Shown here: positions 18,073-61,735 of the stretch, piece by piece
How the letters are laid out: each line of letters opens with the position of its first letter
Numbering within the stretch: the first letter of the stretch is position 1
Source of the DNA: Ischnura elegans
Lineage: Eukaryota > Arthropoda > Insecta > Odonata > Coenagrionidae
Assembly (NCBI RefSeq): GCF_921293095.1
Contig: NC_060246.1
Coordinates: forward strand, 108,790,941 to 108,854,940
Direction: 5' to 3'
DNA length: 64,000 bases
Program-made: the position numbers and the translations under genes
The notes under the pieces: model-generated
Database searches by the model: none
What the model was told of the DNA's origin: nothing
What the model saw: the letters and a program-made list of their open reading frames with translations, nothing else

Positions 18073-18104
18073 TTTAGTGAGTGTGAGTTTATAATCTTTT
18101 TCGT

Positions 18105-35526: not shown

Positions 35527-35778
35527 AAGAGCAGTTTCTATGGCATGGGAATTTTTGCCATGTGATGGACGTACTCAAGGAGAGAGATTTCAAATCAGAC
35601 GGGAGCTGCAGCTAGCTGTGAGGAAAAGTTGTGCTCCCAGTGTGGAGGCTGATGAAAACTTGGGCGAAATCCATTGTGTGGCAAGCTGAGCCTCAGAAAT
35701 GGCAGTTGGAAATGCTGTAACTGTAGAAATAATGTATTTTCTGTTACGGTTTGTGTTTTGGGATTAAATCTCTGAATG

Positions 35779-36171
35779 TCATAGGTTTTGGCAACTTTTT
35801 GGTGGGATTACTAAAAAATTTCCAAACCATGTGGGCAGGATGAAGAATATGTATTCAAAAGTATGTATTGGTAGTTGTGTGATGTCTTTTTGTATTGGAT
35901 ACAATAAACAAAAATTCTTGGTAAGGAATGTCTGATGAGGATATAAAAACTGGTAACGGGGTCCTGTACGTGTAACATTGGAATTGATAAATCTGGCAGT
36001 TATCACCTCAAGTTGGACCGAAATGTCAAAGTTTTGATCTTTAATTAAATGGTGCTTCATCATTAATGGGATACATATGCAACATCCAAGCAACTCAAAT
36101 TCACAATCGCAGTAAAAACTCTGTAGTGATGAAAAACTGCCATTATTGTGACCGCTGGTGATGTCTAACAA
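35779..36171 (-). CDS. Unidentified 130-codon open frame (mirror 63356-63748)
   Basis: The frame is open from a TTG at 36171 to a stop at 35779 and is kept in both arms with one residue changed. It has a CDCEFELLGCC cysteine cluster and a hydrophobic C-terminal half (YIFFILPTWFGNFLVIPP) that could span a membrane. There is no ATG at its front. No family was recognised; it may be chance. Confidence 0.2.
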   Translation of the reverse strand: MLDITSGHNNGSFSSLQSFYCDCEFELLGCCICIPLMMKHHLIKDQNFDISVQLEVITARFINSNVTRTGPRYQFLYPHQTFLTKNFCLLYPIQKDITQLPIHTFEYIFFILPTWFGNFLVIPPKSCQNL

Positions 36172-36284
36172 GTTGAACTCACTGAGTATATTTCTTTGCG
36201 TTGTTTTCCGCCGCTGATTGGGAACCGATCGGTCTTCTCAGGTCATCGTCAAGTGATGAATGCATGTTGACAAGAGGCATTGAT

Positions 36285-36720
36285 GATTGATTTCAAAGAA
36301 GCATTTCAACAAGACGACAGAGTACCGCAAGTACAATTCCAAGAAGGGATTAAAAGGCACAATGAAGCGGAGACTCGGATGGAGCCTGCGATGCTACTAG
36401 CAAAATAAACTTTAAATTTACCTCATGCACAATTATTGCACGCATACGATGCGAGAGTTTGTACTTATACATACATACTTGCTTATTGATGTTTGTATGC
36501 TTCTTACATATTTGTCATTTTATAACTTTTTATATTGATTACATGCTATCTTTCGCTACCCTTTACTATATAAATGTGTTAAATTGTGCTTATTAATGTT
36601 TATATGCTTTTATATGTACTTAATTATGTAACGCTATGTCTACATGCTGTTTAATGTAACACTTTTCTGTACATTGGGTTAACACCCGTAAGAATAAACA
36701 ATTATTATTATACTGACGTG
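36285..36720 (+). mobile_element. Retroposon 3' end with TTATTATTAT tail (mirror 62807-63242)
   Basis: A short frame from ATG 36285 (IDFKEAFQQDDRVPQVQFQE and onwards) ends in TAA at about 36406. About 300 bp of AT-rich trailer follows, closing with AATAAACAATTATTATTAT. A trinucleotide tail of this sort marks the 3' ends of several LINE clades and their SINEs. The frame is too short to place. Confidence 0.4.
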
Positions 36721-36777
36721 CTATCATCGTGCGATGCATTTAGAAATCGTTCTAATTCTCTATTGTTCCGGTGAATA

Positions 36778-37119
36778 ATGAGACACAAAACAATCTTCAC
36801 ATCAGGCATGAGAGGGTATCGCTCGACCTATATCACTGAGACATCGTTTGAAATACGTGAACTAAAAATGTCACACGCGATGGCCTTAAAAATACGACCA
36901 AATCAAAGTTTAAGAAAACCTTTTCACTTGGAAACGCTTGCGGTAATTTGCTGGTGGTATAATATGATCTATATAATTTCTCCGAGCGAATCCGGTCACA
37001 TTGAACCTTTTAAAGTGGAAGTTGCCTATATTTTGGCAAGTGCGGTAACGCAAGGATTGGTGATGAGGATGCTCTTAAGTGTAAGCATTCACCGATTTTC
37101 ACCTTTATTCCTCTCGTGA
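36778..37119 (+). CDS. Unidentified 113-codon frame (mirror 62408-62749)
   Basis: Starts with ATG at 36778 and is intact and identical in both arms. The protein is basic at the start and hydrophobic around residues 60-95, with no recognised motif. It lies about 0.7 kb upstream of the U1 gene. It could be a chance frame. Confidence 0.2.
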   Translation: MRHKTIFTSGMRGYRSTYITETSFEIRELKMSHAMALKIRPNQSLRKPFHLETLAVICWWYNMIYIISPSESGHIEPFKVEVAYILASAVTQGLVMRMLLSVSIHRFSPLFLS

Positions 37120-37791
37120 AAAAAGTCCGTAATATCTCCAGCCCTTTTTAAGTTGAATGTCTAAGAAATCTCATTTTCAAGAATTCATTTTAGTAAAAGG
37201 TAAGACCTACCTAAAGCGATGATCGTGAAAGCCATGTGTGTTTACGATCAGGAAACTGCGGAAGTGGCGGGGATATAGGTTCGGTTCAAACACGGCCAAT
37301 CGATAGGAATACGAAAGAAACGAGGATCGACTCGCGGGGTAATACGCAAAAGGATCTTCGAATGTGAGTCCTTTGAATGAATATTAGATGGAATGAGACT
37401 TGGGAACCTGTAGTTCACCCTCAGTGCAAAATTTTCCTCCACCACTCACCGTGTCCTCTCCAAAATTACTCCATGATTCTCTTGTTCTTGCGTGGTTCTC
37501 TTGCGCGGAAATTGAGAAGAGTCGGCTCAATGCGTGAAGCGCGCTAGAGGTTCTTTTTCCCTTCGTAATGCGACCGAAGGGCGTTAAATACTGTGGTCTA
37601 AGGTCCTTAGAAAGGAATGATTTACATATTCTATATTGAGGTTCATCGTCGTTTCTTATTAAAAATCCAGCACTGGCCTTTTAATTCCAGAAAAGAGGTC
37701 TTCGTGCCATATACGAGAAATTGAAATGAAGTCACCGATATGTAAACGTAGGGGGTGTTGAACCCGGTTCTTCAAAATTTGAAAATCGAAC
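37120..37791. promoter_or_regulatory. DNA upstream of U1, likely holding the snRNA promoter (mirror 61736-62407)
   Basis: The roughly 120 bp before the U1 start would be expected to hold a proximal sequence element at about -60 to -40. The sequence there (around 37730-37752) does not show a consensus I can call with certainty. The region is the same in both arms, so both U1 copies have the same upstream control DNA. Confidence 0.35.
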
Positions 37792-37811
37792 ATACTTACC
37801 TGGCGTAGGGG
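37792..37811 (+). pseudogene. U1 snRNA gene, 5' part (left arm)
   Basis: ATACTTACCTGGCGTAGGGG is the 5' end of U1 snRNA, including the ACTTACCTG that pairs with 5' splice sites. It stops after 20 nt, where the truncated retrotransposon begins at the GGGG/CCCCC joint. The rest of the gene resumes at 41731. U1 nucleotides 21 to about 34 are missing, so this copy cannot give a functional U1. Confidence 0.95.
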
Positions 37812-37816
37812 CCCCC

Positions 37817-38557
37817 GTGTGCTACCGTGCTCCCTCCCCCGTGTATCACCGTCCCCGCTCCCCTGTGTACCACCGTGCCCCCTCCCCCGTGTATCGTCAC
37901 CGCCGCTCCCCTGTGGACCACCGTGGCCCCTCCCCCAAGTGTCACCGAGCCCCTTCCCCTGTGACCCACTACCCTGTGCACCGCCACCCAATTCCCCAAG
38001 TGCTGCAAGATCAACGCCTACCTCTGAATCTTACCCACCCCCCAGTGCCTAATGGTCACCAGTGGCAATCGGAACGTCGCCGTTTCCCTCCGGGAAGCTG
38101 TCGACTCGGCGCCAACCATCGTTCGCCCTCTCCACTGGGACGCCGAACCTACCCCTCCGAAGACCATCCTCAACCGATTAATCACCTCCCCACCCCCTCT
38201 GCCTTCCACCGACCCAACCCAGTTCGCCACCGTCCCCCCTCCCCGTCTCACCCAAACCAATCCCGAGTGCGCCCTCAATCCCCTGTGAATGTGCAGTGCC
38301 CGCCCCCACATGTGCATCCACCTCCCCAGCATGTGCAGCAAGGGCCTCGAAACCCAATGATAACACATCCAGCCGCATCAATTGGCTCCCACCTATTTCC
38401 GCTGCCGACGGACGCGAGCTATGTACCAGCTCCCCCAATGTGGAACCCCTACACCCAAGTGCCTCCCCGGTTTCTGCTGCAGCACCCCGGCCAGCCCCAT
38501 CCGATGTGGTCCCACCTGGGATGGGGCCTTCCAGTGGGGCCACACCTGCAAATGTAA
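37817..38557 (+). CDS. ORF1 C-terminal part, left copy (truncated)
   Basis: It matches the C-terminal 240 residues of the right copy's ORF1: repeated R(A/P)PSPVYHR-type units, then a proline-, histidine- and arginine-rich stretch, ending VGPHLQM. It has lost its start region by 5' truncation. It overlaps the beginning of the ORF2 frame by about 260 nt. Function unknown; see the right copy. Confidence 0.7.
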   Translation: MCYRAPSPVYHRPRSPVYHRAPSPVYRHRRSPVDHRGPSPKCHRAPSPVTHYPVHRHPIPQVLQDQRLPLNLTHPPVPNGHQWQSERRRFPPGSCRLGANHRSPSPLGRRTYPSEDHPQPINHLPTPSAFHRPNPVRHRPPSPSHPNQSRVRPQSPVNVQCPPPHVHPPPQHVQQGPRNPMITHPAASIGSHLFPLPTDASYVPAPPMWNPYTQVPPRFLLQHPGQPHPMWSHLGWGLPVGPHLQM

Positions 38558-41496
38558 GTGCTGAGACACCCTCCGTACCCCCACCCGTCAGACAGAGGCG
38601 AGCTCAAAGCAGGCCACGTGACGCCGGAGGCGCCACTTCTACCTTACCAGCAACATTGGAAAGAGAAGATAGGCCCCCGAAAACGAAAACCCGCCAGGAG
38701 CTTCCCACTGAGAATCAAATGATCTGGCAGATCAGATTGGGCATACTGCGGGATGGAGATATCAGGGAATTCGAAGACATAGTCGCCGAAATCACGGAGG
38801 AAGGGGCGGCGCTCAACCCGAGAAGCATAACCCGCGGACCAGCTTCCCGCACCCCTAGACCGCCATTGGAGCCCGGTAGGCTGCAACACCTATATAAAGT
38901 AAACAAAGGAGCGGCCGCAAAAAAGGTCATGGAACCAGCTTTGCCCACGTGTGACGTCCCATCGGATGAGGTGGTGAACTTCTTTCGCAAGCCAGGGCGT
39001 CCGCCCTCCAATACCCCCGCTCCATCGGTAATCCCTTCGTGGAACTTTATAAGGCAGGACCACGAAGTGGCAAAACTCACTCGGAAGATATCACCATCTG
39101 AAGTGACAAAGCGCCTACAGAAGGCAAAAAACACCGCCCCTGGCCCTGACCTGGTACCTTACCGAGCGTGGCGCCAAATCGATCCAGACGGCTCGGTACT
39201 CGCAAGCATATTTAACTGGTGCATGACGAGCAAAGCAGTGCCACAACAGTGGAAAACATCAAAAACTGTCCTGACTCTTAAAGGTGGTGACGAACACGAC
39301 ATATCAAACTGGAGACCCATCGCACTAATGCCCACCATGGCCAAGCTATTTACGGGGATTCTGGCGGACAGGATCTCCCACTGGGCCCTGAGGAGTCGTC
39401 GGCTATCATTTCCCATCCAGAAAGGCTTCATACCCTCCACTGAAGGATGTTTTGAACACAACTTCCTCCTGCAGGCCGCAATGGAGGACGCCCGTCGCAA
39501 CTACAAGGAAATCGCGATAGCCTGGCTGGATCTGGCTGACGCATTCGGGTCAGTTCCTCACGACCACATCTGGCAGACGCTGCGGGCCCTCGAAATGCCG
39601 GACGACATGGTCCAAGTGATTGCCTCTCTATATGAAGGGGCAAACACAACGGTACAGCTCTCCACCGAGGTTACGGATGAGATACCCCTTAGATGTGGCG
39701 TCCGGCAAGGTGACCCTCTCTCCCCTCTCCTATTTAACCTCGCCATCGAGCCCTTGCTTAGGGCTATCCTCCAGAAACGGGTCACGGCGGCCTATAAATG
39801 TGGCCCCACATCCCTCTGCGTCCTCGCGTACGCAGACGATCTAGTAATAATAGGGAGAAATGCGGGGATGCTGAGATCCCTACTATTCGCAGCAAGCAAA
39901 GCAGCAGATTGGTGTGGGCTCAAGTTTAAGCCCAGAAAGTGTGCAAGCCTTCACGTTGATTTCGGCAAAAACAGGCAGAGGCTGCCGGAGTCGACGTTTG
40001 ACATTCAGGGAGCAACGATGCATGCTCTCCGTGAAGGGGAAGCTTACAGGTATCTTGGTTGTCCTGTAGGGTACAAGGCAGGTACGTCCCCAACGGAAAC
40101 CCTGCAGGGCATGACCAGGGATACTACCCTCATCGCACAGAGTGACCTCCTCCCCTGGCAAAAAATCGACGCCGTTCATACATTCATCACCCCCAGAATA
40201 ACGTTCCCGCTACGAGTCTCAGCAGTTGCAATAAAAGATCTTGCCACCGCTGATAAGGTCATCCAGCATGCTATCAAGTCGTGGCTCTGCCTACCAGCCA
40301 GGGCAAGCCGGGAAATTGTGAACATACCAACCAAAGCCGGCGGCGGGGGATACGTGCCACTGACAGATGAGGCCAACATCCAGGCCATAATTCAGGCCTT
40401 CCGAATGTTAACGTGCAAAGAATCGGAGGTGAGGAAGGCTGCATGGTACGGCCTACACGACACAGTCCACCTAAGACTTGGCCGCAACGGTCAACCGCCA
40501 AGCAAGAAAGTGCTCTGCCAGTACCTAAATGGCTCAATGGAGGGGGAACTTGGTACAAGCTCCAAAGAGTGCGCGTCGACTTGGTCGAGGGCCAGGAAGG
40601 CGACCAGGGGGCTCGCGCCGCTATGCCTACCGGAGTGGGAATGGAGTGAAGCCAAAAAAGAAATCTCACTCCGAGTGAGGAACCCGCGCTCGGACCTGGA
40701 ACTCATCATTATCCCGCCGTCGGCTCGTCACCGCATCACAGGTCTCCTCCGAGGTGCAGTATACGAGGCCTACAGGCGCCGTCTAATTGCCAAACCAGAC
40801 CAGGGCAGGGTTTTCGAGCTCTCCTCTACCAGCGACGAGAGCAACCACTTCATCAGGTCAGGCGAGCACACGAGGTTAAAGGACTGGTGTTTTGTACATA
40901 GGGGAAGACTAAATGTACTCCCTCTCCGAGGGGCGCTACGGGGTAGTGCCACACCGGAAGACAGACGATGCAGAATCTGTGGAATGGCGGATGAGACCCT
41001 CGTCCACGTGTTGAACCAGTGCCTGGCCCATCGGCAGCTGCGGATAGCCCGACACAATAGAATCCAGGACCTCCTAGTCGAGCACCTGCCGCGAACGTGG
41101 GAGGTGACCATTGACAAAACGGTGCCGGGTGCCGACAGGAGGCTGAGACCGGACATCGTGGCTCGAGGAGGCCCAACGGGCAGGGTGTTCATTGTGGACG
41201 TCACCGTTCCCTTCGAGAACAGACGACAAGCCTTCCGTGCAGCGCGTGTGGCTAAACTGGAAAAGTACCGCGACCTCGCTTCCCAACTCCGTGCGGAGGG
41301 GGGATACAAAACCGAGGTCAGGCTAGGAGCATTGATTGTCGGCGCCTTAGGCTCCTGGGACAGCAAGAATGACCCTATCCTAACTGGCCTTGGCATCACC
41401 CCTCGAAAAATCCGGTCGCTGAGGAAGAAAATGTGCTCCACGGCCATTACATGTTCAGCGGACATATACAGGAAGCACATGAAGTTGCCAGAGTAA
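38296..41496 (+). CDS. ORF2: reverse transcriptase plus restriction-like endonuclease, left copy
   Basis: An open frame of 1066 codons beginning with GTG; the first ATG is codon 76 (38521). The RT spans about residues 260-560: APGPD at 281-285, LDLADAF at 411-417, QGDPLSPLLFN near 471-481 and the catalytic YADD at 512-515. A C-X2-C-X8-H-X4-C zinc knuckle is at C892, C895, H904 and C909. It is followed by a PD-D endonuclease core (RPD 951-953, D968, KLEKYRDL 987-994). This order, RT then knuckle then C-terminal RLE, defines the R2/NeSL/CRE/Hero group. The enzyme would nick the target and prime cDNA synthesis there. All catalytic residues are present and no stops occur. No N-terminal zinc finger or ULP protease was recognised. 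Confidence 0.93.
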   Translation: MPAPTCASTSPACAARASKPNDNTSSRINWLPPISAADGRELCTSSPNVEPLHPSASPVSAAAPRPAPSDVVPPGMGPSSGATPANVSAETPSVPPPVRQRRAQSRPRDAGGATSTLPATLEREDRPPKTKTRQELPTENQMIWQIRLGILRDGDIREFEDIVAEITEEGAALNPRSITRGPASRTPRPPLEPGRLQHLYKVNKGAAAKKVMEPALPTCDVPSDEVVNFFRKPGRPPSNTPAPSVIPSWNFIRQDHEVAKLTRKISPSEVTKRLQKAKNTAPGPDLVPYRAWRQIDPDGSVLASIFNWCMTSKAVPQQWKTSKTVLTLKGGDEHDISNWRPIALMPTMAKLFTGILADRISHWALRSRRLSFPIQKGFIPSTEGCFEHNFLLQAAMEDARRNYKEIAIAWLDLADAFGSVPHDHIWQTLRALEMPDDMVQVIASLYEGANTTVQLSTEVTDEIPLRCGVRQGDPLSPLLFNLAIEPLLRAILQKRVTAAYKCGPTSLCVLAYADDLVIIGRNAGMLRSLLFAASKAADWCGLKFKPRKCASLHVDFGKNRQRLPESTFDIQGATMHALREGEAYRYLGCPVGYKAGTSPTETLQGMTRDTTLIAQSDLLPWQKIDAVHTFITPRITFPLRVSAVAIKDLATADKVIQHAIKSWLCLPARASREIVNIPTKAGGGGYVPLTDEANIQAIIQAFRMLTCKESEVRKAAWYGLHDTVHLRLGRNGQPPSKKVLCQYLNGSMEGELGTSSKECASTWSRARKATRGLAPLCLPEWEWSEAKKEISLRVRNPRSDLELIIIPPSARHRITGLLRGAVYEAYRRRLIAKPDQGRVFELSSTSDESNHFIRSGEHTRLKDWCFVHRGRLNVLPLRGALRGSATPEDRRCRICGMADETLVHVLNQCLAHRQLRIARHNRIQDLLVEHLPRTWEVTIDKTVPGADRRLRPDIVARGGPTGRVFIVDVTVPFENRRQAFRAARVAKLEKYRDLASQLRAEGGYKTEVRLGALIVGALGSWDSKNDPILTGLGITPRKIRSLRKKMCSTAITCSADIYRKHMKLPE

Positions 41497-41730
41497 TTTA
41501 TGCGAACTTAAGTGCTAACAGTGATTTTTATTTTTTGTGTTTATGTTATGTTTCAGTGCCAGATATGAAATTTATGTTGTATAAAATCATTTGTACCACA
41601 GTGACAGTGACAGTAATGACTCAGAAAGACATTTAGGGAATTATCCCTTTCTATTTTGAAAGGGGATCATTCGCCAATGGCGAACACATTTGTACATTAA
41701 ATTGTATATACTTCTCAAAATTGAAAATAA
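41497..41730 (+). ncRNA. LINE 3' UTR with two stem-loops, left copy
   Basis: Stem 1 pairs ATCCCTTTC (41643-41651) with GAAAGGGGAT (41658-41667). Stem 2 is TTCGCCAATGGCGAA (41670-41684). In R2-type elements the RT recognises structure in the 3' UTR. The right copy keeps both stems with different bases, which supports function. Confidence 0.65.
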
Positions 41731-41860
41731 AAGGCGGTTCCCCCAGGACGAGGCTTGCCCATTGCACTCCGGGCAGGCTGACCCCTGCGATTGCCCCAAA
41801 TGTGGGTAACTCGGGCGCGTAATTTTTGGTAGTAGGGACTGCGTTCGCGCTGTCCCTCCA
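41731..41860 (+). pseudogene. U1 snRNA gene, 3' part (left arm)
   Basis: The sequence continues U1 from AAGGCGGTTCCCCCAGGACG through stem-loop II (TGCCCATTGCACTCCGGGCA, with the U1A-binding loop ATTGCACTCC) and stem-loop III. It then covers the Sm site (AATTTTTGG at 41821-41829) and stem-loop IV with a TTCG loop (GGGACTGCGTTCGCGC). Together with the 5' part it accounts for almost the entire gene of about 164 nt. Confidence 0.95.
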
Positions 41861-47774: not shown

Positions 47775-48375
47775 AATCACAGTTTACGACGGCATAATAT
47801 TTAAATATAATGTGCATATTATTCGAATTTTATGAACAAAATCCACGGAATATTATTTGCATTTTATGCGTATCCATTTATGCAACTTTTATACTGAATA
47901 GAATTTTGAATTTGCTGGGTGGCCGCTAATTTATGATTCTTATAAGAATCATAATTAACGATGAAATGTTACTAACAACGAAATAATATACATATTATGT
48001 CAATATTATTTATAGTTTACGGCGGCATAATATTTAAATATAATGTGCATATTATTCGCATATTATGTGCATAATCGACGGAATATTATTTGCATTTTAT
48101 GCGTATCCATTTATGCAACTTATATACTGAATAGATTTTGAGTTTGCTGGGTGGCCGTTAATTAATGATTCTTATAAGAATAATAATTAATGATGAAATG
48201 TTACTAACAACGAAATAATATACATACTATGTCAATATTATTAATAGTTTACGGCGGCATAATATATTTAAATATAATGTGCATATTATTCGCATATTAT
48301 GTGCATAATCGACGGAATATTATTTGCATATTATACCTATCTATTTATGCAACTTTTATACGGTATAAATTTTGA
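47775..48375. repeat. Tandem repeat, about 2.5 units of 231 bp
   Basis: Units start at about 47786, 48017 and 48249 with GTTTACG(A/G)CGGCATAAT. Each contains ATTTAAATATAATGTGCAT, TTTATGCAACTT, GAGTTTGCTGGGTGGCCG and GATTCTTATAAGAAT. Units are about 93% alike. Satellite-like, AT-rich. Confidence 0.8.
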
Positions 48376-50991: not shown

Positions 50992-51029
50992 ATAGATGTC
51001 CGTCTTAAAATTCGTCTCATTGAATCACA

Positions 51030-51101
51030 TCCTCGGTAGTATAGTGGTCAGTATCCCCGCCTGTCACGCGGGAGACCGGGGTTCGATTCCCCGCCGGGGA
51101 G
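51030..51101 (+). tRNA. tRNA-Asp(GTC): tRNA-Asp (anticodon GTC), right arm
   Basis: Inverse copy of the gene at 47192-47263, with identical sequence. Acceptor, D, anticodon (CTGTCAC) and T arms are all intact. A T7 terminator lies at 51104-51110. The two genes point toward the outer ends of the inverted repeat. Confidence 0.97.
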
Positions 51102-51162
51102 GATTTTTTTCTCAATCTCATAACATTTAAAAAAATTTACAATGGATATTTCAACTACGCAG

Positions 51163-51668
51163 GCTGACTAGGTATAGTAAATAAACTTTGTTAATATTTT
51201 GTTAACATATAGACTGTTCAAGTATTTTTTGTTTTAAAAATATTAACATTGAAAATAAAAATCTATACTGTATATTGTATAAGTTCATTAAATATAAAGA
51301 GCTCGTGCAGAAGTACGTAGAATGTACGTATATCTATATCCCGACACCGCGATCGCTACAGCGAGATATACATATGTATAGTGTATACAATGGTATAGGT
51401 TTGGTCACCGCTATACTTTTACATACTGAATACTGGCATCTGTCTGCTTCTAGTTCTATACTGTACATATGTACTTTTTCTATACAGTGCGTATTATTTT
51501 GTAGACTGTTAATAGAGATTAATATATACACTTTGTTAGTATATTGTTAATATATAGACTGTTAGTCTTTTTGTTTATAAAATATTTAAATTGAAAATAA
51601 AAATCTATAGTGTATATTTTTTAAGTTCATTAAATATAAAGAGCTTGTGCATGAACGTGCAGAAGAGT
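51163..51668. repeat. Two direct repeats about 355 bp apart (right arm)
   Basis: Mirror of 46625-47130, same content. Confidence 0.65.
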
Positions 51669-51962
51669 GTACACGCTATAAAAATACAGGTCACTACAAT
51701 TTAAGGCAGTTTCTTTTATGTGCATAGTGAACAATTATAGGTTTCGAGCATATTAAATAAAAGCATATTATATTTTAATATATAAATGATGTTACTTTCT
51801 ATTCGTGCACATCGTAGTTTTAATATATATTTAATAATAAACAGTTTGCTGAAAAAAATAATTTCAATTTTTGTTGAAAAATGAGTATTACTGGAAAAAT
51901 TAGTTCTTTAATAATATTAAATCTATATAAAAAATAAATGAATAATAATTATTTCAGTTTTC

Positions 51963-52303
51963 ACTTCTGTCGGCCAGTCCCACGACTGCCCTGATTTTTT
52001 TTACTAAAGGTAGAAATATGGTCATTCCAGTTAAGCTATAGTAGCTTAACATAAGTTTCAATTTTACTAAAATTGTTATTACACATTAAATGTTGCATTT
52101 CTTCGTGATCTACTAGTAGTTTATCAGCTGAAAACAAGTCAATAGCTTACTGTTTCACTCCTTTCAGCTCTTCATGTTAGGTTTGCAAAGTTGTTATTAA
52201 AAGATGTATCATCGGCATATAAGATGGAGACTGAAGTAATGCTGCTTGGTAGGTATAGATCATTATTGTACTGTATGTAGATGAAGCCAACGAATCTACA
52301 CAT
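51963..52303 (-). pseudogene. LINE RT fragment, right arm
   Basis: Mirror of 45990-46330, with the same YADDTSF-containing dead RT piece. Confidence 0.65.
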
Positions 52304-53247
52304 TACGCCACCGCTGGAACAATACTGACGAACAGCTGTTCTATGGTTATCATCAGCATACATTGCATACGTACCAATTCAATTAGAGTAACACTTCTAA
52401 GTTGCACATCTCAACACATTTCGTCCGATGTCATCTGACAGGGTCCTCATATTAAGAAATAGGTGCTGGGTTTTCCAGGTGGAACGAACCTACACACCCA
52501 TGAGAAACACGACAGGCACTGCAATTCGTTTCTCCTTGGTTTTTAGCCCGACCTTTTTCATACATTCGCCGTGCGCTGAATTTCTCCGATCAAGGCCAAG
52601 GTTTAGTTGCTCATGTGCGTGTGTGACATTTTCTTCAAAGAACTGGAAATTCCTTTCCAAACTTCATATCACGACAACTGACGACGATCACTACCTCAGC
52701 TTACCACTTCAAATTAACAGCCTGTTCCATATTAGCCTCGAAACACTCGGTCGGGTGTTCTCTTCATTGATCCGCACGCTCCACGTTCAAATTTAAGTCC
52801 GCCGCGCGAATTTTCCAGCACCCAGCTGCAGCAAGATTCGTATCCAGACGCTAGATGGCACAAAAAATTTCTCTTCAACCCAAGCGACATCCAAGTCTAA
52901 CATTTACCTAAAAACCAACTAAACATTAAAATAATTGTATCACTTCATGCTGAAGATATTTTTACAACCACACGATGCAGCGTTTGAACAATATCCCATA
53001 CACATGAATAATAATTCGGATGAAGCGTAGCGCTCACTATGTAGTGGCGCGCAAGTACATTTCACGACCCTATTTCGGCGTGTTATTGATAAGCCTTGTT
53101 TCCCTTCAAGCGAATAAATCTTTCGCCTTTTACTAAAGATTTCCGTGGAGGGGAACATTCATGGCTCTGTAACGAATTTTTGACTGTGCCCAGCAGATAC
53201 TCTGCTGGGCCAAATATATCAATCCAGAAGTGTGCGAGTTCAGGGAT

Positions 53248-53959
53248 TAGTGATGAGCGGAACTGTGATTCTTGAATCACTTCGTTACCTGTGACTGCTA
53301 CTCATCAGTAACGGTGATTCTTAACTGTGATTGTGATCACCGAGGAGAATCACTCTTAAAATTAAGCGGTGATTTGTTGCGTTGCTATTCCTGCTACTTT
53401 GTCCAATTCCAATGGATGAGCTCTCCGAAAAAAGAGCGAATAAACTTATAGAAAATTAGGAAAAATATTTTTTTTAGGGATTAGTTCTGATTCTGAGTTT
53501 ATATTGCGTTAATTAAGTAAATTTGATATGGTAAAGTAATTGATGAGGGGCAATCATTAAAATCCCGTCGGAATTTTTTAAACATATTTTGTACTCATAC
53601 CATCATGATTCAAACCGATAGCTTTATATTTCGTAAGGAATGTCTTATTCATCATAAAAGATGAATAAGACATCCTTTGTTATACTGTTGGTAGCAGTGG
53701 TAGCAGCCGAAGCTATCCTCAACCTATTCACAGTCGCAGTGATTTCGAGTATTCAGTGATTTAGTCACCGGCAGTGATCGGCTACTTCTCTTCAATCACA
53801 GGTAGCGATATATCGCTAATCACTTGGTAGCAGCCTGTGCTATCTTCACGAATCTAGTGATTCAATCACAGTGATTTCGAGTATTAATTCACCGACAGTG
53901 ATTGCTACTTTTCAGTAACGGTGATTCAATCACAGTTAGCGATATATCGCTCATCACTA
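53248..53959. mobile_element. hAT MITE (right arm)
   Basis: Mirror of 44334-45045. The same ends and the same imperfect target duplication show that it inserted before the arms were duplicated. Confidence 0.75.
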
Positions 53960-54912
53960 CCAGGAATAGAAGGCTTGCAAAATTTTTACAAACTGCATCG
54001 ATTAAGTTGAAATTTTGACAATGGGTGGGGAATAGACTTAAGAGTCAAAATCTATATCATGCTAACCACCCGTTTCACGCTCGGGCTTGATAATGGGCTT
54101 GGATTTGTTTGTCATACGCAAAACGTTTCAGATTAAATATCAAAATAAGGGAAGACTGCATTTTCGCGGACAATTTTAAGCATCATTTATTAATTGTTTA
54201 AAAAACTCATAACCGTAAAAAATGTCGTTAACATGAAATTTGAGCGATAAAAACAAGGCCCGTCCCTACTTTTTTCTATGAAGAAATGAGTGTAAACAGC
54301 AACCACCCCAACTAAATTTGATCGTTTTCATTTAAATGTTCTCTTTATTCAGGTACTCTCAATGAATAATAAAAGTTTCATCGATTTACAATCCTTAATT
54401 TGAAAAAAAAAATTTGGAGCTAGGAGTCAAAAATATTTTCTACAATTTCGTAATAAATGATATTATTTTCAAAATATCTCCAAAAATGCTGGAGATACGA
54501 AAAATGTTAGGGCTAACATATTGTAGCTTCTATAATTTCTAGATTTTGCTTTGTTTTTCTGTGCAATAAATAATTGGTGAGATAAGGCCGTTCGAAGTCT
54601 CTATTTACCACGGAGCACGACTTTAGTTAAGACCTTTACAATCACCCCTTTTCAAAACTAAGGAAATAAAAGGAATTTATATAGCCTCTCAATAAAATCT
54701 ACTAAATAGTTTTTAAGTGGACTCTCTATCATCAAAAAGGATGGGGATATGCTTAAAGAATCAAACCAATTTTGTTCGAAAAACTCGAAAAGCACAATTC
54801 AGAGCATCATAATCTACATTACCGGTATATACTTTGTGTGCTACACGTTCGGCACTGACTTATGCACTCAGATTCACTCCAAAATAAACACACACACCCA
54901 TAAGATGCGTAT

Positions 54913-55281
54913 ACAGGGTGTCCCATTTATCTTGACCACCCGAAATAACTTTTTGTCCAGATGCAAATTCAAAAATGTGTCAATCAAATGTTCATTAGCC
55001 GTCAGGGGGACATTAATCAGCATTATTGCATTCCTTGTAGCTTTTAGTAGATTTACAAAGATAAGAACAGCCTGTACGCCTTTTTTAAATGGCACCCTAT
55101 ATTTTTTATTGGGCAATTCATTTCCTCTCCTATAACTCCTCCTGTTGCTGCAAGTTACAAGGAAGGCAATCATGCCGATTAATGTCCCCCTGACGGCTAA
55201 TGAGCATTTGCTTGACACATTTTGGAATTTGCATTTGGACAAAGAGTTATTTCGGGTGGTCAAGATAAATGGGACACCATG
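54913..55281. mobile_element. Foldback MITE (right arm)
   Basis: Mirror of 43012-43380, with the same borders. Confidence 0.75.
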
Positions 55282-56433
55282 TATACACATTTTTATGTCT
55301 TTGCTCGCACGCGCGTGACGTGTGTGCATGCAGGTAGCGGGAAGAGTGGAAGCCATGCAGTATTCGATAGATTGAATTTCATGTAATCTATTGATAAATA
55401 TACATTTATTTGTAAACCATCGCACCCCATTAAAATGAACAAACCGCCTGCACCTGATGTACTTCTCATAACGAATTTTTTACAATCACAAAAAAGGCTG
55501 CGCCGTTTCATGTGGCCGAAGAAAAGAGGAATTATATTGCTAATCGATTTGATCTGGATGCTCTGGTGAGGACTGTCCAGTATCGAAGACAAGGATCACG
55601 ACGACGATGATTATGTTAATGTGGATGATCAAAAATGTTATTTCTATCTGTGTTTGGATAAATTTTATTTTCGCCTATGTATGTAAATATTTAGTGTAAT
55701 TTTGATTAAATAAACGTTTGGTTTAATTTTACTTATCTCATATTTATAGCTAATAAAGTAGTTTAAATGTTGTATGGGGTGGTCTTTACGGGTTGAAAAG
55801 TTGCAAAAAGGAAACTAGTATTAAGCAACAAAATTCTTAAACCACTGTGACGAATAATTTACTTTTTAGGGGTAAATAATTTTTCGCATTAACTCACTCC
55901 TTTTTAAGGTTTGAAATATTCTGAAATTATGTTCCAAAGCATTAAAAGATCGCTATTCAATTAGACAAACAAAATCTTACCCATTTGAAGTTTTAAAACG
56001 TTCTTTTCTAACGTTGGCATTATGGGGGTAGTTTTCACCCCTAAAAAATAATAAGCGCCAATCGGCTACAACTAGATTATGACATAGAGGGTAAGATTAG
56101 CCTAATCCCAAATTTTTATGCAAATCGATTCAGTTCGAAAAATTGCAAGGTTTTCCACTTATTTGAACTTCATTTCCTGGACTAGTATGGAGAAGTCTCA
56201 ACATTGGAAATCATTTACTACGCCGGTCGGTCAACGGTCAAGTCCCACACAACATCTTCACGCGAATGGAGGGAACAAACTCAACTCCACGCTACCAAAC
56301 CCATTATTATTGTGAAACGGGAATCTTCGTCTACCGAGGAAAAGCTGAGGGACAGCATAGACCCTCGCGGACTTGTGTCGTTGAATAACATGCCGCTACC
56401 ATTTGGGTAGAAGTGAACCATGAGAACGATTAT

Positions 56434-56562
56434 GGAGGGACAGCGCGAACGCAGTCCCTACTACCAAAAATTACGCGCCCGAGTTACCCACATTTGGGGC
56501 AATCGCAGGGGTCAGCCTGCCCGGAGTGCAATGGGCAAGCCTCGTCCTGGGGGAACCGCCTT
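56434..56562 (-). pseudogene. U1 snRNA gene, 3' part (right arm)
   Basis: Mirror of 41731-41860. It covers stem-loops II to IV and the Sm site. It starts at the same base relative to the retrotransposon 3' end as in the left arm, so the 3' junction is identical in the two insertions. Confidence 0.95.
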
Positions 56563-56828
56563 TTATTTTCAAATTTGAAAAACAAGTATATACAAATACA
56601 TATAATACAAGGTTCGCCATAGGCGATGAATCCCCCCATTTTCAGGGTGGGGATGTTTCCCTAAATGTCTTTCTAGGCACTTCACATAAAAATTAGTCAC
56701 TTTCACAGTTACCCTTTGCACAGAAAAATAAATCACTCTGGTAGACTTCGCACAGATCATCACTCACTATTTCCCCTTATGGGTTAATGCACACAAACAA
56801 AAATATATATATATACAAAAGGAATAAA
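56563..56828 (-). ncRNA. LINE 3' UTR with two stem-loops, right copy
   Basis: Stem 2 is TCGCC-TAT-GGCGA (56614-56626). Stem 1 pairs ATCCCCACC with a TGGGGGGAT arm (about 56630-56655). The primary sequence is only about 70% like the left copy, but both stems persist. The final TTTGAAAATAAA abuts U1. Confidence 0.65.
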
Positions 56829-59800
56829 TTAATCTGACAAGTTCATATGTTTTCTGTATATGTCCGTCGAGTATCTTATGGCAGCGGAGCACATTCTCTT
56901 CTTCAGGGACCTAATCCTCCGTGGGCTGATTCCCAGGCCGGCGAGGACAGGGTTGTTTCTTCCGTCCCAGGAACCCAGGGCGCCGACAATAATGGCCCCC
57001 AGCCGGACGTCTGTCTCGTAGCGCCCCTCCACGCGTAATCTGGCTGCCAGGTCGTGGTACTTTTCTATTTTTGCTGCTCGCGCTGCTCGGAAGGACGGTC
57101 GTCTATTTTCGATGGGTATGGTTACGTCGATGATATAGACCCTCCCCATTGGGCCTCCGCGAGCCACAATGTCCGGACGCAGCCTCGTGTCCGCTCCAGG
57201 CACCGTCCTGTCAATGGTTACCTCCCATGTTTTCGGGATGTATTCCACCAAGAGGTCCTGGATGCTGTTGTGCCGGGCTATCCGCAGCTGACGGTGGGCC
57301 AGGCATTGGTTGAGGACATGAGTGAGGGTCTCGTCCCCCTCCTGGCAGATCCTGCATTTCCGGTCCTCAGGCTCGGCACTCCCCCTTAGTGCCCCACGGA
57401 GCGGGAGCACATTCAATCGGCCTCGGTGGACGAAGCACCAGTCCTTCAGTCTGGTGTGCTCACCCGACCGAAGGAAGTGGTTGCTTTCGTCTTCGATGGA
57501 GGAGAGCTCGAACACCTTACCCTGGTCCGGCTTGGCCACCAGCCGGCGCCTGTAGGCCTCGTGTACTGCTCCTCGGAGGAGACCGGTGATGCGGTGGCGG
57601 GCCGACGGCGGGATAATAATGAGCTCCAGGTCCGAACGCGGGTTCCTCACTCGGAGTGAGATTTCTTTTTTGGCGTCACTCCATTCCCACTCCGGTAGGC
57701 ATAACGGCGCGAGCCCCCTGGTCGCCTTCCTAGCCCTTGACCATGTCGACGCGCACTCCTTGGAGCTCGTACCAAGTTCCCCCTCCATTGAGCCATTTAG
57801 GTACTGGCAGAGCACTTTCTTGCATGGCGGTTGACCATTGCGGCCAAGTCTTAGATGCACTGTGTCATGTAGGCCGTACCATGCAGCCTTCCTCACCTCT
57901 GGGTCTTTGCACGTTAACATCCGGAATGCCTGAATTATGGCCTGGATGTTGGCCTCATCTGTCAGTGGCACGTATCCCCCGCCACCGGCTTTGGTTGGTA
58001 TGTTCACAATTTCCCGGCTTGCCCTGACTGGTAGGCAGAGCCACGACTTGATAGCGTGATGGATGACCTTATCAGCGGTGGCAAGGTCCTTTATTGCAAC
58101 TGCTGAGACTCGTAGCGGGAACGTTATTCTGGGGATGATGAATGTATGGACGGCGTCTATTTTTTGCCAGGGGAGGAGGTCACTCTGTGCGATAAGGGTA
58201 GTATCTCTGGTCATGCCCTGCAGGGTTTCCGTTGGGGACGTACCTGCCTTATACCCTACAGGACAACCAAGATATCTGTAGGCTTCCCCTTCACGGAGAG
58301 CCTGCATCGTTGCTCCCTGAATGTCAAACGTCGACTCCGGCAGCCTCTGCCTGTTTTTGCCGAAATCAACGTGAAGGCTTGCACACTTTCTTGGCTTAAA
58401 CTTGAGCCCACACCAATCTGCTGCTTTGCTTGCTGCGAATAGTAGGGATCTCAGCATCCCCGCATTTCTCCCTATTATTACTAGGTCGTCTGCGTACGCG
58501 AGGACGCAGAGGGATGTGGGGCCACATTTATAGGCTGCCGTGACCCGTTTCTGGAGGATAGCCCTAAGCAAGGGCTCGATGGCGAGGTTAAATAGGAGAG
58601 GGGAGAGAGGGTCACCTTGCCGGACGCCACATCTAAGGGGTATCTCATCCGTAACCTCGGTGGAGAGCTGTACCATTGTGTTTGCCCCTGCATATAGAGA
58701 GGCGATCACTTGGACCATGTCGTCCGGCATTTCGAGGGCCCGCAGCGTCTGCCAGATGTGGTCGTGAGGAACTGACCCGAATGCGTCAGCCAGATCCAGC
58801 CAGGCTATCGCGATTTCCTTGTAGTTGCGACGGGCGTCCTCCAATGCGGCCTGCAGGAGGAAGTTGTGTTCAAAACATCCTTCAGTGGAGGGTACGAAGC
58901 CTTTCTGGATGGGAAATGATAACCGACGACTCCTCAGGGCCCAGTGGGAGATCCTATCCGCCAGAATCCCCGTAAATAGCTTGGCCATGGTGGGCATTAG
59001 TGCGATTGGTCTCCAGTTTGATATGTCGTGTTCGTCACCACCTTTGAGAGTCAGGACAGTTTTCGATGTTTTCCACTGTTGTGGCACTGCTTTGCTCGTC
59101 ATGCACCAGTTAAATATGCTTGCGAGTACCGAGCCGTCTGGATCGATTTGGCGCCACGCTCGGTAAGGTACCAGGTCTGGGCCAGGGGCGGTGTTTTTTG
59201 CCTTCTGTAGGCGCTTTGTCACTTCAGATGGTGATATCTTCCGAGTGAGTTTCGTCACTTCGTGGTCCTGCCTTACAAAGTTCCACGAAGGGATTACCGA
59301 TGGAGCGGGGGTATTGGAGGGCGGACGCCCTGGCTTGCGAAAGAAGTTCACCACCTCATCCGATGGGACGTCACACGTGGGCAAAGCTGGTTCCATGACC
59401 TTTTTCGCGGCCGCTCCTTTGTTTACTTTATATAGGTGTTGCAGCCTACCGGGCTCCAATGGCGGTCTAGGGGTGCGGGAAGCTGGTCCGCGGGTTATGC
59501 TTCTCGGGTTGAGCGCCGCCCCTTCCTCCGTGATTTCGGCGACTATGTCTTCGAATTCCCTGACATCTCCCTCCCGCAGTATGCCCAATCTGATCTGCCA
59601 GATCATTTGATTCTCAGTGGGAAGCTCCTGGCGGTTTTTCGTTTTCGGGGCCCTATCTTCCCTTTCCAATGTTGCTGGTAAGGTAGAGGTGGCGCCTCCG
59701 GCGTCACGTGGTCTGCTTTGAGCTCGCCTCTGTCTGACGGGTGGGGGTACGGAGGGTGTCTCAGTACTTACATTTGCAGGTGAGGCCCCACTGGAAGGCC

Positions 59801-60029
59801 CCATCCCAGGTGGGACCACATCGGGTGGGGCTGGCCGGGGTGCTGCAGCAGAAACCGGGGAGGCACGGGGGTATAGGGGTTCCACAATGGGGGAGCTGGT
59901 ACATAGCTCGCGTCCGTCGGCAGCGGAAATAGGTGGGAGCCTGTTGATGCGGCTGGATGCGTTATCATTGGGTGTCGAGGCACTTGCTGCACATGCTGGG
60001 GAGGTGGATGCACATGTGGGGGCGGGCAC
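56829..60029 (-). CDS. ORF2: reverse transcriptase plus restriction-like endonuclease, right copy
   Basis: 1066 codons with the same architecture as the left ORF2: RT with YADD at 512-515, knuckle C892/C895/H904/C909 and PD-D endonuclease (PD 952-953, D968). The first ATG is codon 76 (59804). ORF1 covers the first 87 codons in another frame, so ORF2 is made either from that internal ATG or by a frame change from ORF1. Codons 1 to about 843 are about 96% identical to the left copy by hand count, but the last 222 only about 78%. The two copies thus differ mainly across the knuckle and nuclease. No inactivating change is visible. Confidence 0.93.
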   Translation of the reverse strand: MPAPTCASTSPACAASASTPNDNASSRINRLPPISAADGRELCTSSPIVEPLYPRASPVSAAAPRPAPPDVVPPGMGPSSGASPANVSTETPSVPPPVRQRRAQSRPRDAGGATSTLPATLEREDRAPKTKNRQELPTENQMIWQIRLGILREGDVREFEDIVAEITEEGAALNPRSITRGPASRTPRPPLEPGRLQHLYKVNKGAAAKKVMEPALPTCDVPSDEVVNFFRKPGRPPSNTPAPSVIPSWNFVRQDHEVTKLTRKISPSEVTKRLQKAKNTAPGPDLVPYRAWRQIDPDGSVLASIFNWCMTSKAVPQQWKTSKTVLTLKGGDEHDISNWRPIALMPTMAKLFTGILADRISHWALRSRRLSFPIQKGFVPSTEGCFEHNFLLQAALEDARRNYKEIAIAWLDLADAFGSVPHDHIWQTLRALEMPDDMVQVIASLYAGANTMVQLSTEVTDEIPLRCGVRQGDPLSPLLFNLAIEPLLRAILQKRVTAAYKCGPTSLCVLAYADDLVIIGRNAGMLRSLLFAASKAADWCGLKFKPRKCASLHVDFGKNRQRLPESTFDIQGATMQALREGEAYRYLGCPVGYKAGTSPTETLQGMTRDTTLIAQSDLLPWQKIDAVHTFIIPRITFPLRVSAVAIKDLATADKVIHHAIKSWLCLPVRASREIVNIPTKAGGGGYVPLTDEANIQAIIQAFRMLTCKDPEVRKAAWYGLHDTVHLRLGRNGQPPCKKVLCQYLNGSMEGELGTSSKECASTWSRARKATRGLAPLCLPEWEWSDAKKEISLRVRNPRSDLELIIIPPSARHRITGLLRGAVHEAYRRRLVAKPDQGKVFELSSIEDESNHFLRSGEHTRLKDWCFVHRGRLNVLPLRGALRGSAEPEDRKCRICQEGDETLTHVLNQCLAHRQLRIARHNSIQDLLVEYIPKTWEVTIDRTVPGADTRLRPDIVARGGPMGRVYIIDVTIPIENRRPSFRAARAAKIEKYHDLAARLRVEGRYETDVRLGAIIVGALGSWDGRNNPVLAGLGISPRRIRSLKKRMCSAAIRYSTDIYRKHMNLSD

Positions 60030-61489
60030 TGCATATTCACAGGGGATTGAGGGCGCACTCGGGATTGGTGTGGGTGAACCGGGGAGGGGGGACGGTGGCG
60101 AACTGGGTTGGGTCGGTGGAAGGCAGAGGGGTTGGGGAGGTGATTAATCGATTGAGGACGGTCTTCGGAGGGGTAGGTTCGGCGTCCCAGTGGAGAGGGC
60201 GAACGATGGTTGGCGCCGAGTCGACAGCTTCCCGGAGGGAAGCGCCGACGTTCCGATTGCCACTGGTGACCATTAGGCACTGGGGGGTCGGTAGAATTCA
60301 GAGGTAGGCGTTGATCTTGCAGCACTTGGGGATTTGGGTGGCGGTGCACAGGGAAGTGGGTCACAGGGGAAGGGGCTCGGTGACACATGGGGGAGGGGCC
60401 ACGGTGGTCCACAGGGGAGCGGGGGAGGCGATACACGGGGGAGGGGGCACGGTGGTACACAGGGGAGCGGGGACGGTGATACACGGGGGAGGGAGCACGG
60501 TAGCACACGGGGGCGCGAGGGGGATGAAGTACGCGAGGGCCTCTGTCGCACGCTTCGTCCAGCAGCCTCTGGTCTCGGATGAGGGGGGGGATGTTTCGGT
60601 GGTCATCCACATGGTCGTACGCCGGGCGCTTCTGGTAGCGCCTATTCCTTCTGCGTCTACGGCGACGGGGTGGCTCCTCCCTTTCCCTGACTTCGTCCGT
60701 TCTCTGCTCTCCAGTCGCCAGTGGTGGGTTTTGAGGACCTATCAAGTGCTCGTGAGGCTGCACTCTTTGCCTTACACTTCCCACACATCTGCATGTGCCG
60801 TGAGTGGCACTTACGGGTTCCCTAACATTGTGGGTTTGTGTGTTTGCACTGGTGACACTCGGGTCAAAAACTGCGATTACCCTGTCACTTCCACTGACTG
60901 CTAAGTCATCACTTTCACCCATGTCGATGGGTACATGGTTACCATTGTCACTTGGGGAAGGTTCACTAAGATCACTTAATGGTAAGTTGGGGGAAACGAT
61001 CGTGGTAGCGTTATTTTGACTTACCGGCTCAAGTTGAACCTCCGTCCTTTCTCCAGGGTGAGTGTCGTTGGCTTGCCGTTGAGACAGGTAACGCTCATCT
61101 CCCTCCTCCGTGGCAGCCAGGGGGGATAGGGGTTCCGGCGAAATAGGCTCTAAAATCTCCGTGTTGGCAGCAGTCTCCTCCTCTGTTTGCGTGCCTTTGT
61201 GGACAAGGCGAGGCACTCTATATGGCGGAACACTGCAACCTCTTTTTCTGACTACTGGCCGCCGAACGGATTCGCCTCCAGCCGTCAGGGCAGTTTCTTC
61301 GCCAAATATTTTCACCCATTCTTCGGCTATCCATTTGTCCACTTCTGCCTGATCAATTGACTTCAGCGTTGTGGATGCTGCTACTTTCCTTGCCCTTGAC
61401 GTGCTGCGCAGTTCCCGTTCTCGGGTCACCGTGGGCGGAAGTTTATGCACCGCCGTTTGCATCGTCGATGCTACTCCTTTACTCAGCAT
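59768..61489 (-). CDS. ORF1: proline/arginine-rich protein, right copy
   Basis: From the first ATG (61489) the frame gives 573 residues. The N-terminal third has a charged, probably helical part (TLKSIDQAEVDKWIAEEWVK). The middle is acidic and serine-rich, followed by a strongly basic patch RRRRRRRNRRYQKR. A tandem array of ten-residue units of R(A/P/G)PSPVYHR type (a 30-bp minisatellite, about 60375-60525) comes next. The last 200 residues are rich in P, H and R (HVHPPPQHV). No esterase, RRM, zinc knuckle or ULP protease was recognised. The basic patch suggests RNA or DNA binding. Its stop (59768) lies inside ORF2, 37 nt after ORF2's first ATG. Confidence 0.75.
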   Translation of the reverse strand: MLSKGVASTMQTAVHKLPPTVTRERELRSTSRARKVAASTTLKSIDQAEVDKWIAEEWVKIFGEETALTAGGESVRRPVVRKRGCSVPPYRVPRLVHKGTQTEEETAANTEILEPISPEPLSPLAATEEGDERYLSQRQANDTHPGERTEVQLEPVSQNNATTIVSPNLPLSDLSEPSPSDNGNHVPIDMGESDDLAVSGSDRVIAVFDPSVTSANTQTHNVREPVSATHGTCRCVGSVRQRVQPHEHLIGPQNPPLATGEQRTDEVREREEPPRRRRRRRNRRYQKRPAYDHVDDHRNIPPLIRDQRLLDEACDRGPRVLHPPRAPVCYRAPSPVYHRPRSPVYHRAPSPVYRLPRSPVDHRGPSPMCHRAPSPVTHFPVHRHPNPQVLQDQRLPLNSTDPPVPNGHQWQSERRRFPPGSCRLGANHRSPSPLGRRTYPSEDRPQSINHLPNPSAFHRPNPVRHRPPSPVHPHQSRVRPQSPVNMQCPPPHVHPPPQHVQQVPRHPMITHPAASTGSHLFPLPTDASYVPAPPLWNPYTPVPPRFLLQHPGQPHPMWSHLGWGLPVGPHLQM

Positions 61490-61704
61490 TAAGCATATAA
61501 ACCAACTGAAGGGCCGGATTACCCGTTCCAACGGTACTTGGCACAGCTCACCTCTCAGTGGTTATAAATTTCGAGGCTGAAGGCCCTTACGTAGGCGACA
61601 CAGAAACACTACTTAAGCACACTTACGTTTACCTCCCGAACGTCGGCAGTCAGCAGCTGTCAGCTTCCACAGGGTATTCAGGATTCCAGTTATTCCATTA
61701 TAAG
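61490..61704 (-). promoter_or_regulatory. 5' leader of the U1-inserted LINE
   Basis: About 215 bp between U1 nt 31 and the ORF1 ATG. R2-group elements often open with an HDV-like self-cleaving ribozyme at this place. The leader has GC-rich complementary pieces (for example GGAATAACTGGAATCC), but I could not establish the double-pseudoknot fold. Confidence 0.35.
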
Positions 61705-61735
61705 GATCACGGTAGCCCCTACGCCAGGTAAGTAT
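61705..61735 (-). pseudogene. U1 snRNA gene, 5' part (right arm)
   Basis: 31 nt of U1 from ATACTTACC to CTACCGTGATC, i.e. the splice-site-pairing tail and the ascending side of stem-loop I into its loop. The insertion falls inside the loop that U1-70K binds (GAUCACGAAG in known U1). It shows the sequence that the left copy lost (nt 21-31). Confidence 0.95.

What the first reader, a model, noticed from the sequence alone, without database searches (positions are those of the whole stretch)
37792..41860. Retrotransposon inserted in a U1 snRNA gene: candidate U1-specific R2/NeSL-like LINE
The left U1 gene is cut after nt 20 and resumes at about nt 35 on the other side of a LINE with RT, zinc knuckle and PD-D endonuclease. 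Sequence-specific LINEs with this enzyme type target multicopy genes (R2 in 28S rRNA, NeSL/CRE types in spliced-leader genes, Utopia in U2 snRNA genes). A U1 target would be a new niche as far as I know. The U1 identity is firm: splice-site-pairing 5' end, U1A-binding loop, Sm site and stem-loop IV are all readable.
Basis: partly seen in the sequence, partly recalled or inferred. Interest (0 to 1): 0.95.

Follow-up and report, generated by a model that had tools for sequence, protein, structure and literature searches.

The report
Jumping gene that targets U1 genes
A damselfly genome carries a retrotransposon that inserts at one exact spot in U1 splicing-RNA genes, while its relatives in the same genome use U2 genes, so it looks like a natural example of a site-specific jumping gene that changed its target.

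Summary
Confirmed and extended. The window (inferred to be Ischnura elegans) holds two copies of a LINE with an R2-type endonuclease, one in each arm of an inverted repeat, both inside U1 genes. A genome search (best candidates only) gave six close loci. All five with a readable 3' end are in U1 with the same 3' junction (nt 35); the sixth is a decayed fragment without a 3' end. The four full-length copies share one 5' end; in the two whose U1 5' part is unmutated, the site is CCTT|AAGG (nt 34/35) with no duplication or deletion. Flanks differ between loci, and the palindrome pair differs in 5' end and 3' half, so the insertions look independent. All five occupied U1 genes are of one variant (5 of 10; 0 of 25 other listed U1 matches). 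Of 36 divergent relatives (41-47% identity) in or near a U2 array, 31 are followed by U2 at the published Utopia site and none by U1. In trees the U1 family lies in an odonate clade with U2-inserted elements. Best reading: a Utopia-lineage element whose target changed from U2 to U1. No U1-targeting LINE appeared in the paper lists searched.

The parts
37792..37811 (+). U1 gene, 5' fragment of the left copy (nt 1-20; nt 21 ambiguous)
   Evidence: exact match to intact U1 L064 of the same genome through nt 21
37812..41730 (+). LINE, left copy (L), 5'-truncated; boundary at 37812/37813 ambiguous by one base
   Evidence: alignment to the right copy
37817..38557 (+). ORF1, 3' part (5' part lost by truncation)
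   Evidence: 92.7% identical to R ORF1 over 248 aa; frame
38182..41496 (+). ORF2 frame, stop to stop, 1104 aa: RT, CCHC knuckle, PD...D endonuclease; overlaps ORF1 in another frame
   Evidence: aligned with R and relatives
41497..41730 (+). 3' UTR with predicted hairpins and a short A-rich end (TTGAAAATAA)
41731..41858 (+). U1 gene, 3' fragment, nt 35 to end
   Evidence: Rfam RF00003 88.9 bits
61701..61735 (-). U1 gene, 5' fragment of the right copy (matches nt 1-35; nt 35 ambiguous)
56563..61700 (-). LINE, right copy (R), full length; last ~600 nt of ORF2 and the 3' UTR from a divergent sublineage
59768..61462 (-). ORF1 from the ATG used in the I. elegans protein P0121 (open frame 59768-61561)
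   Evidence: P0121, 95% identity over 94% of the query
56829..60143 (-). ORF2 frame, stop to stop, 1104 aa; overlaps ORF1
56563..56828 (-). 3' UTR of R, mostly unlike L except its last ~110 nt
56435..56562 (-). U1 gene, 3' fragment, nt 35 to end
   Evidence: Rfam RF00003 88.7 bits
41712..47301 (+). inverted-repeat arm next to L (U1 3' part, U5, tRNA)
   Evidence: 100% complementary to 50992-56581
50992..56581 (-). inverted-repeat arm next to R
35527..37819 (+). outer part of the left arm
   Evidence: 100% complementary to 61708-64000
61708..64000 (-). outer part of the right arm (cut by window end)

Best explanation
This is a non-LTR retrotransposon family of the Utopia lineage (NeSL clade, restriction-like endonuclease) that inserts into U1 snRNA genes at one site, between nt 34 and 35 (CCTT|AAGG), in one U1 variant. 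SHOWN: identical 3' junctions in 5 of 5 readable copies; one common 5' end in the 4 full-length copies; no target duplication or deletion in the two of them whose U1 5' part is unmutated; U2 insertion of relatives in the same genome. INFERRED: the ORF2 protein, perhaps with ORF1, binds U1 DNA; its endonuclease nicks the bottom strand at nt 34/35; the freed 3' end primes reverse transcription from the 3' end of the element RNA (target-primed reverse transcription), with the last ~110 nt of the 3' UTR, the part kept between L and R, as the likely recognition part; top-strand cleavage at the same place and second-strand synthesis complete insertion, with occasional 5' truncation as in the left copy. 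INFERRED from the trees and the ancestral U2 target: the target changed from U2 to U1 in an odonate ancestor.
Against: Only five insertions, two of them in one palindrome. A sixth fragment (C10:94.53M) has no U1 next to it, but it also has no element 3' end. Only the best candidates were scored (42), so copies outside U1, above all ORF-less 3' fragments, could be missed; the search meant to find them did not complete. The place of the U1 family within the odonate clade has modest support (83/81), and the targets of the Ladona and Hetaerina elements are unknown. In C1:159.3M and C1:154.0M the U1 5' part differs from the reference U1 before the junction, so their 5' junctions rest on the common element end. 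Activity and DNA binding were not tested.
Confidence: 0.92

Rival explanations
1. One chance insertion in a U1 gene was copied with the gene by palindrome formation or segmental duplication, and the element has no target specificity.
For: L and R lie in arms that are 100% identical. The C1:159.3M U1 locus is an old paralogue (upstream 78% over 379 columns).
Against: L, C10:57.64M and C1:159.34M elements are 97.6-100% alike in 250-column windows (95.6-96.7% in the last, U1 window of 90 columns) while flanks are 65-78% in forced alignments or not found by blastn. L and R have different 5' ends and ~75%-identical 3' parts inside identical arms. U1 sites lie on two contigs. The relatives in this genome are inserted at one U2 site in 31 of 36 cases.
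Confidence: 0.03
2. It is a loosely specific element that prefers a short motif such as CCTTAAGG and was only recovered in U1 because such copies survive.
For: The site is the middle of an 8-bp palindrome, and the U1 type used carries GATCCTTAAGG.
Against: No copy was found outside U1 among the 5 with 3' ends, although an 8-bp motif should be very common in 1.7 Gb (inference).
Confidence: 0.05
3. The U1 pieces belong to the element (captured U1 sequence at both ends), so U1 is cargo rather than target.
For: U1 sequence borders the element on both sides in every full-length copy.
Against: The U1 halves carry locus-specific differences (for example C10:57.64M shares GGGCGGG with the intact U1 genes nearby on C10) and continue into differing flanks. 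Intact U1 genes join at the same nucleotides. The truncated copy still has the U1 5' end.
Confidence: 0.01

Closest known systems
Utopia (NeSL clade; Kojima and Jurka 2015, PMC4640811)
   Same: RT phylogeny; restriction-like endonuclease with CCHC knuckle; insertion in an snRNA gene with fixed 3' junction; no target duplication (as reported for arthropod Utopia); few copies. Copies with the published U2 junction are present in the same genome.
   Different: Target is U1 nt 34/35, not U2. Two overlapping ORFs and no N-terminal C2H2 finger by pattern; both are shared with the U2-inserted elements of the odonate clade in this genome, whereas the other U2 lineage here (L027) has a finger-like motif.
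R2 (28S rDNA)
   Same: Fold of RT, linker and endonuclease; target-primed mode inferred.
   Different: Other target; 21-26% identity in structural alignments; sequence score 264 bits to the best R2 chain against 911 and 660 bits to I. elegans P0001 and Camponotus P0012 (residues 170-1104).
NeSL-1 (spliced-leader genes of nematodes)
   Same: Same clade (PMC4640811), small-RNA-gene target.
   Different: Other target and host; the Ulp1-like protease described for NeSL was not reported by Pfam at E 0.001.
Keno (U2, Tx1 clade)
   Same: LINE in an snRNA gene.
   Different: Apurinic-type endonuclease and U2 target (PMC4640811).
Dada-U1 (DNA transposon, zebrafish; PMC3706591)
   Same: Inserts in U1 genes.
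   Different: DDE-transposase element; proposed 6-bp duplication GCGAAT/GCGAAC, a site further 3' in U1 (passages).

Membership tests
Utopia | RT groups with Utopia / NeSL-clade elements | tested here: met
   No Repbase Utopia sequence was at hand; the anchors are U2-inserted copies of this genome and proteins from listed Utopia hosts (Ladona fulva, Camponotus floridanus).
Utopia | Insertion in U2 snRNA genes at the nt 39 junction | tested here: not met
   0 of 5 copies in U2, 5 of 5 in U1. Hence described as a U1-specific relative on the Utopia branch, not as a U2-specific Utopia family.
Utopia | Restriction-like endonuclease with C-terminal CCHC finger | tested here: met
   CRICQEGDETLTHVLNQC at ORF2 residue 930; fold of the RT-to-RLE part like R2.
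Utopia | One to three N-terminal zinc fingers | tested here: not met
   Pattern scan finds none N-terminally in ORF1 and ORF2. Also none in U2-inserted elements of the odonate clade (L006-L020, L025, L026; only L025 covers a whole ORF1), but one in the U2 lineage L027. A regular expression can miss atypical fingers.
Utopia | One protein (general, not universal) | tested here: not met
   ORF1 and ORF2 overlap in different frames in R, L, C10:57.64M and C1:159.34M. The same layout is seen in 12 of the 15 U2-relative loci L006-L020; three (L008, L011, L014) have one long frame.
Utopia | No target-site duplication (arthropod families) | tested here: met
   R and C10:57.64M, at most one ambiguous A.
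R2 | 28S rDNA target | tested here: not met
   U1 target.
R2 | Myb domain N-terminal to RT | not tested
   No dedicated Myb search was made; Pfam reported only RVT_1.
Dada-U1 | DDE transposase and 6-bp duplication | tested here: not met
   RT element without such a duplication.
Site-specific LINE in general | Most 3'-complete copies at one target site | tested here: met
   5 of 5 found; the list of copies is a lower bound.
Site-specific LINE in general | Protein binds and nicks the target in vitro | not testable with these tools
   no bench work here

The most novel reading that the evidence does not exclude
An old, U1-dedicated LINE lineage of Odonata that arose from U2-specific Utopia by a change of DNA target, and that reads U1 DNA closely enough to use one U1 variant (CCTT|AAGGCGGTTCCCCC) and spare the main one (AAGGCCGTTCCTCC and the like), so that the host always keeps intact U1 genes. 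The chimeric right copy, whose endonuclease end and 3' UTR belong to a sublineage with synonymous divergence ~1.5 yet sits at the same U1 nucleotide, would be a trace of long coexistence of several U1-specific sublineages.
Probability: 0.55. Interest if true: 0.82.

Novelty: new variant of a known kind. Interest (0 to 1): 0.75.

Why it matters
Site-specific LINEs with this endonuclease are studied as natural machines for inserting DNA at chosen places, and how they change target is an open question. Here U2-inserted and U1-inserted relatives are present with long open frames in one genome, with defined 3' junctions for both. That gives a natural pair for asking which part of the protein or RNA sets the target. 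It also adds a second spliceosomal RNA gene to the targets of LINEs; a 2015 paper listed only U2 for LINEs, and for U1 only a DNA transposon (PMC4640811, part 3 of the text).

Tried and rejected
Loss of the N-terminal zinc fingers as the cause of the target change: rejected as sufficient, because U2-inserted elements of the same odonate clade show no N-terminal finger by pattern either (L006-L020, L025, L026); the other U2 lineage of the genome, L027, does have one. Two ORFs as peculiar to the U1 family: rejected, 12 of 15 U2-relative loci have them too. A U1 target deletion of about 14 nt as the normal outcome: rejected with the intact U1 genes; it holds for the truncated copy only. BLASTP of ORF1 against Hetaerina P0025 (E 0.24) gave nothing significant; against Ischnura P0001 the best piece (E 0.005) aligns ORF1 to the region behind the RT and looks like chance. 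No HDV-like ribozyme or other Rfam family besides U1 was seen at the 5' end (window 61500-61800, E up to 10). A -1 slippery site at the ORF overlap is not convincing: inside the overlap L has two heptamers of that form and R none. The 3' UTR hairpins are predictions only: z -3.9 for L and -1.7 for R, without a covariation test. Scans of viral contigs and genome contigs gave no relative.

A tree test holding all I. elegans U1 and U2 elements as one clade was rejected; this is expected, since one U2 lineage (L027) branches far away, and it says nothing against the U2-to-U1 change. One row labelled U2 in that tree (L026) has no U2 within 2.6 kb of its own ORF (L045). R2 was used as outgroup, so that tree is no test of its exclusion.

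Full report

HOST. Contigs C1 (170,575,982 bases) and C10 (108,619,349) have the same lengths as the contigs of the Ischnura elegans proteins P0001 and P0121, and P0121 is 95% identical to the right ORF1, with its first half letter for letter the same. I infer Ischnura elegans.

ALL COPIES. ORF2 against the whole genome gave 44 matches at 42 loci (42 best candidates scored, so a lower bound). Eight rows belong to six close loci: the two in the window, C10:57.64M, C1:159.34M, C1:154.00M and a fragment at C10:94.53M. Rfam finds U1 next to five of the six and none at the sixth (L024). That fragment is about 72-78% identical to the others, internally deleted, and its 3' end is not there. In all five, U1 resumes at nt 35 after the same tail. 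The four full-length copies begin with the same element sequence, TAATGGAATA in three and TGATGGAGTA in C1:154. Against an intact U1 of the genome (L064), R and C10:57 match through nt 35, so the site is GTGATCCTT|AAGGCGG with nothing lost and at most one ambiguous A gained; C1:159 departs at nt 33 and the decayed C1:154 at nt 17 by base changes in the U1 part. C1:154 also has shifted frames and changes in the U1 3' half.

INDEPENDENCE. blastn with the R locus finds no match before U1 at C10:57, about 52 bases at C1:154 and about 470 bases at C1:159. A forced global alignment of the 390 bases before U1 gives 70-78%, and of 300 bases after U1 66-78% over 73-261 columns; one shuffled control gave 75% over 60 columns, so only values over most of the length mean much, and C1:159 (78% over 379) is an old paralogue. 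The elements of L, C10:57 and C1:159 are 97.6-100% alike in 250-column windows (95.6-96.7% in the last window, 90 columns of U1); C1:154 is 90-100% like them. L and R share arms that are 100% identical, but L is truncated, and R differs from the four others at its 3' end: about 72-76% there. Between L and R, dS is 1.48 and dN 0.13 over the last 209 codons, against 0.11 and 0.016 in the 770 codons before (own Nei-Gojobori script). R is thus a chimera, whether by template switching or by gene conversion. R is the only copy seen with that 3' part, so a second U1-specific sublineage can be suspected but is not shown.

TARGET CHOICE. The U1 search of the genome lists 35 matches, 33 over the cut-off (42 candidates scored, a lower bound); 5 are the occupied genes. 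I fetched and typed all 30 others: 5 of type A (GGCGGTTCCCCC), 21 of type B, 4 other. Some of the 30 are decayed, and two are below the cut-off. The 3' halves of all 5 occupied genes are type A. So 5 of 10 type A are occupied against 0 of 25 others (Fisher p 7.8e-4; the genes are clustered, so not fully independent).

THE U2 RELATIVES. The other 36 rows (41-47% identity) all lie at C1:107.79-108.34M. U2 genes form an array at C1:107.97-108.38M (46 matches scored and listed, 32 at 159 bits or more and 14 at 116-130 bits), roughly 0.4-0.9 Mb from the window. Of the 36, 31 are followed within 2.6 kb by TCTGTTCTTATCAGC of U2, the published Utopia 3' junction (nt 39 in that paper; I did not number it on an intact I. 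elegans U2); 5 are not (L039, L045, L048, L052, L056); none is followed by GGCGGTTCC of U1. My first Rfam look at 15 of them with 1.5-kb flanks found nothing, because in those the junction lies about 1.5-1.7 kb behind the ORF match.

PHYLOGENY. The 57-row quick tree, the 35-row careful tree with R2 as outgroup and the 28-row careful tree all place the U1 family in a fully supported odonate clade. In one search this clade also holds four I. elegans elements from the U2 region (three with U2 read behind them, L006, L009, L012; not so for L026), Hetaerina and Ladona. Inside it, the grouping of the U1 family with Hetaerina and these elements, apart from Ladona, has 83/81. A second I. elegans lineage with a U2 flank (L027; flank in L063) branches outside the odonate clade and has an N-terminal finger-like motif that the odonate clade lacks. 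With U2 as the ancestral Utopia target (PMC4640811, text parts 1-3 of 5 read), the simplest history is a change from U2 to U1. The targets of the Hetaerina and Ladona proteins are unknown.

LITERATURE. In the lists returned by searches of the held open-access library I saw no paper on a LINE in U1; searches found more papers than they listed. PMC4640811 states that for snRNA genes only Keno and Utopia (U2), Dada-U1 and Dada-U6 had been reported. Passages only were seen of PMC3706591, PMC13188248, PMC8869645, PMC5678591 and PMC10781644. Repbase and most subscription papers were not searched, so an earlier entry there cannot be excluded.

JUDGEMENT. This is a known kind of mobile element (a small-RNA-gene-specific LINE of the Utopia branch) with a target new to LINEs as far as the searches reach, in a genome that also holds U2-inserted relatives. 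I call it a new variant of a known kind.

Noticed in passing
window 35527-64000: Near-perfect inverted repeat (arms over 7.8 kb readable at 100%) with U1, U5 and tRNA genes in both arms and U3 in the middle. Several U1 genes elsewhere in the genome also lie in inverted pairs (coordinates), so this may be the usual layout here.
   Followed up: partly
61760-61741 (-) and 37767-37786 (+), against 56583-56565 (-): Twenty bases ending five bases before U1 nt 1 (GTTCTTCAAAATTTGAAAAT) are nearly the same as the element's 3' tail (GTTTTTCAAATTTGAAAAT); 1 of 5000 shuffles for R and 18 of 5000 for L reach the score, but a few other windows of the sequence do too. Meaning unknown.
   Followed up: partly
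G000:C1:107.79-108.38M (L025-L063): A tandem U2 array, units of about 1.8 kb where empty, in which many U2 genes are split by several Utopia families, at least two deep lineages.
   Followed up: partly
U1 genes L064-L093: The genome's U1 genes differ mainly in stem-loop I, the part bound by U1-70K (recalled): two main types, with free variation at the bases between GATC and AAGG.
   Followed up: partly
window 23759-24310 (-): Fragment of a piggyBac-type transposase (type recalled; Pfam DDE_Tnp_1_7, E 1.8e-21).
   Followed up: no
window 18087-18998 (+) and 12923-13477 (-): Two open frames that look like parts of other retroelements (Penelope-like and jockey-like, recalled); no Pfam match.
   Followed up: no
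window 47781-48373: Three imperfect copies of a 126-nt repeat spaced 233-234 nt in the middle of the palindrome.
   Followed up: no
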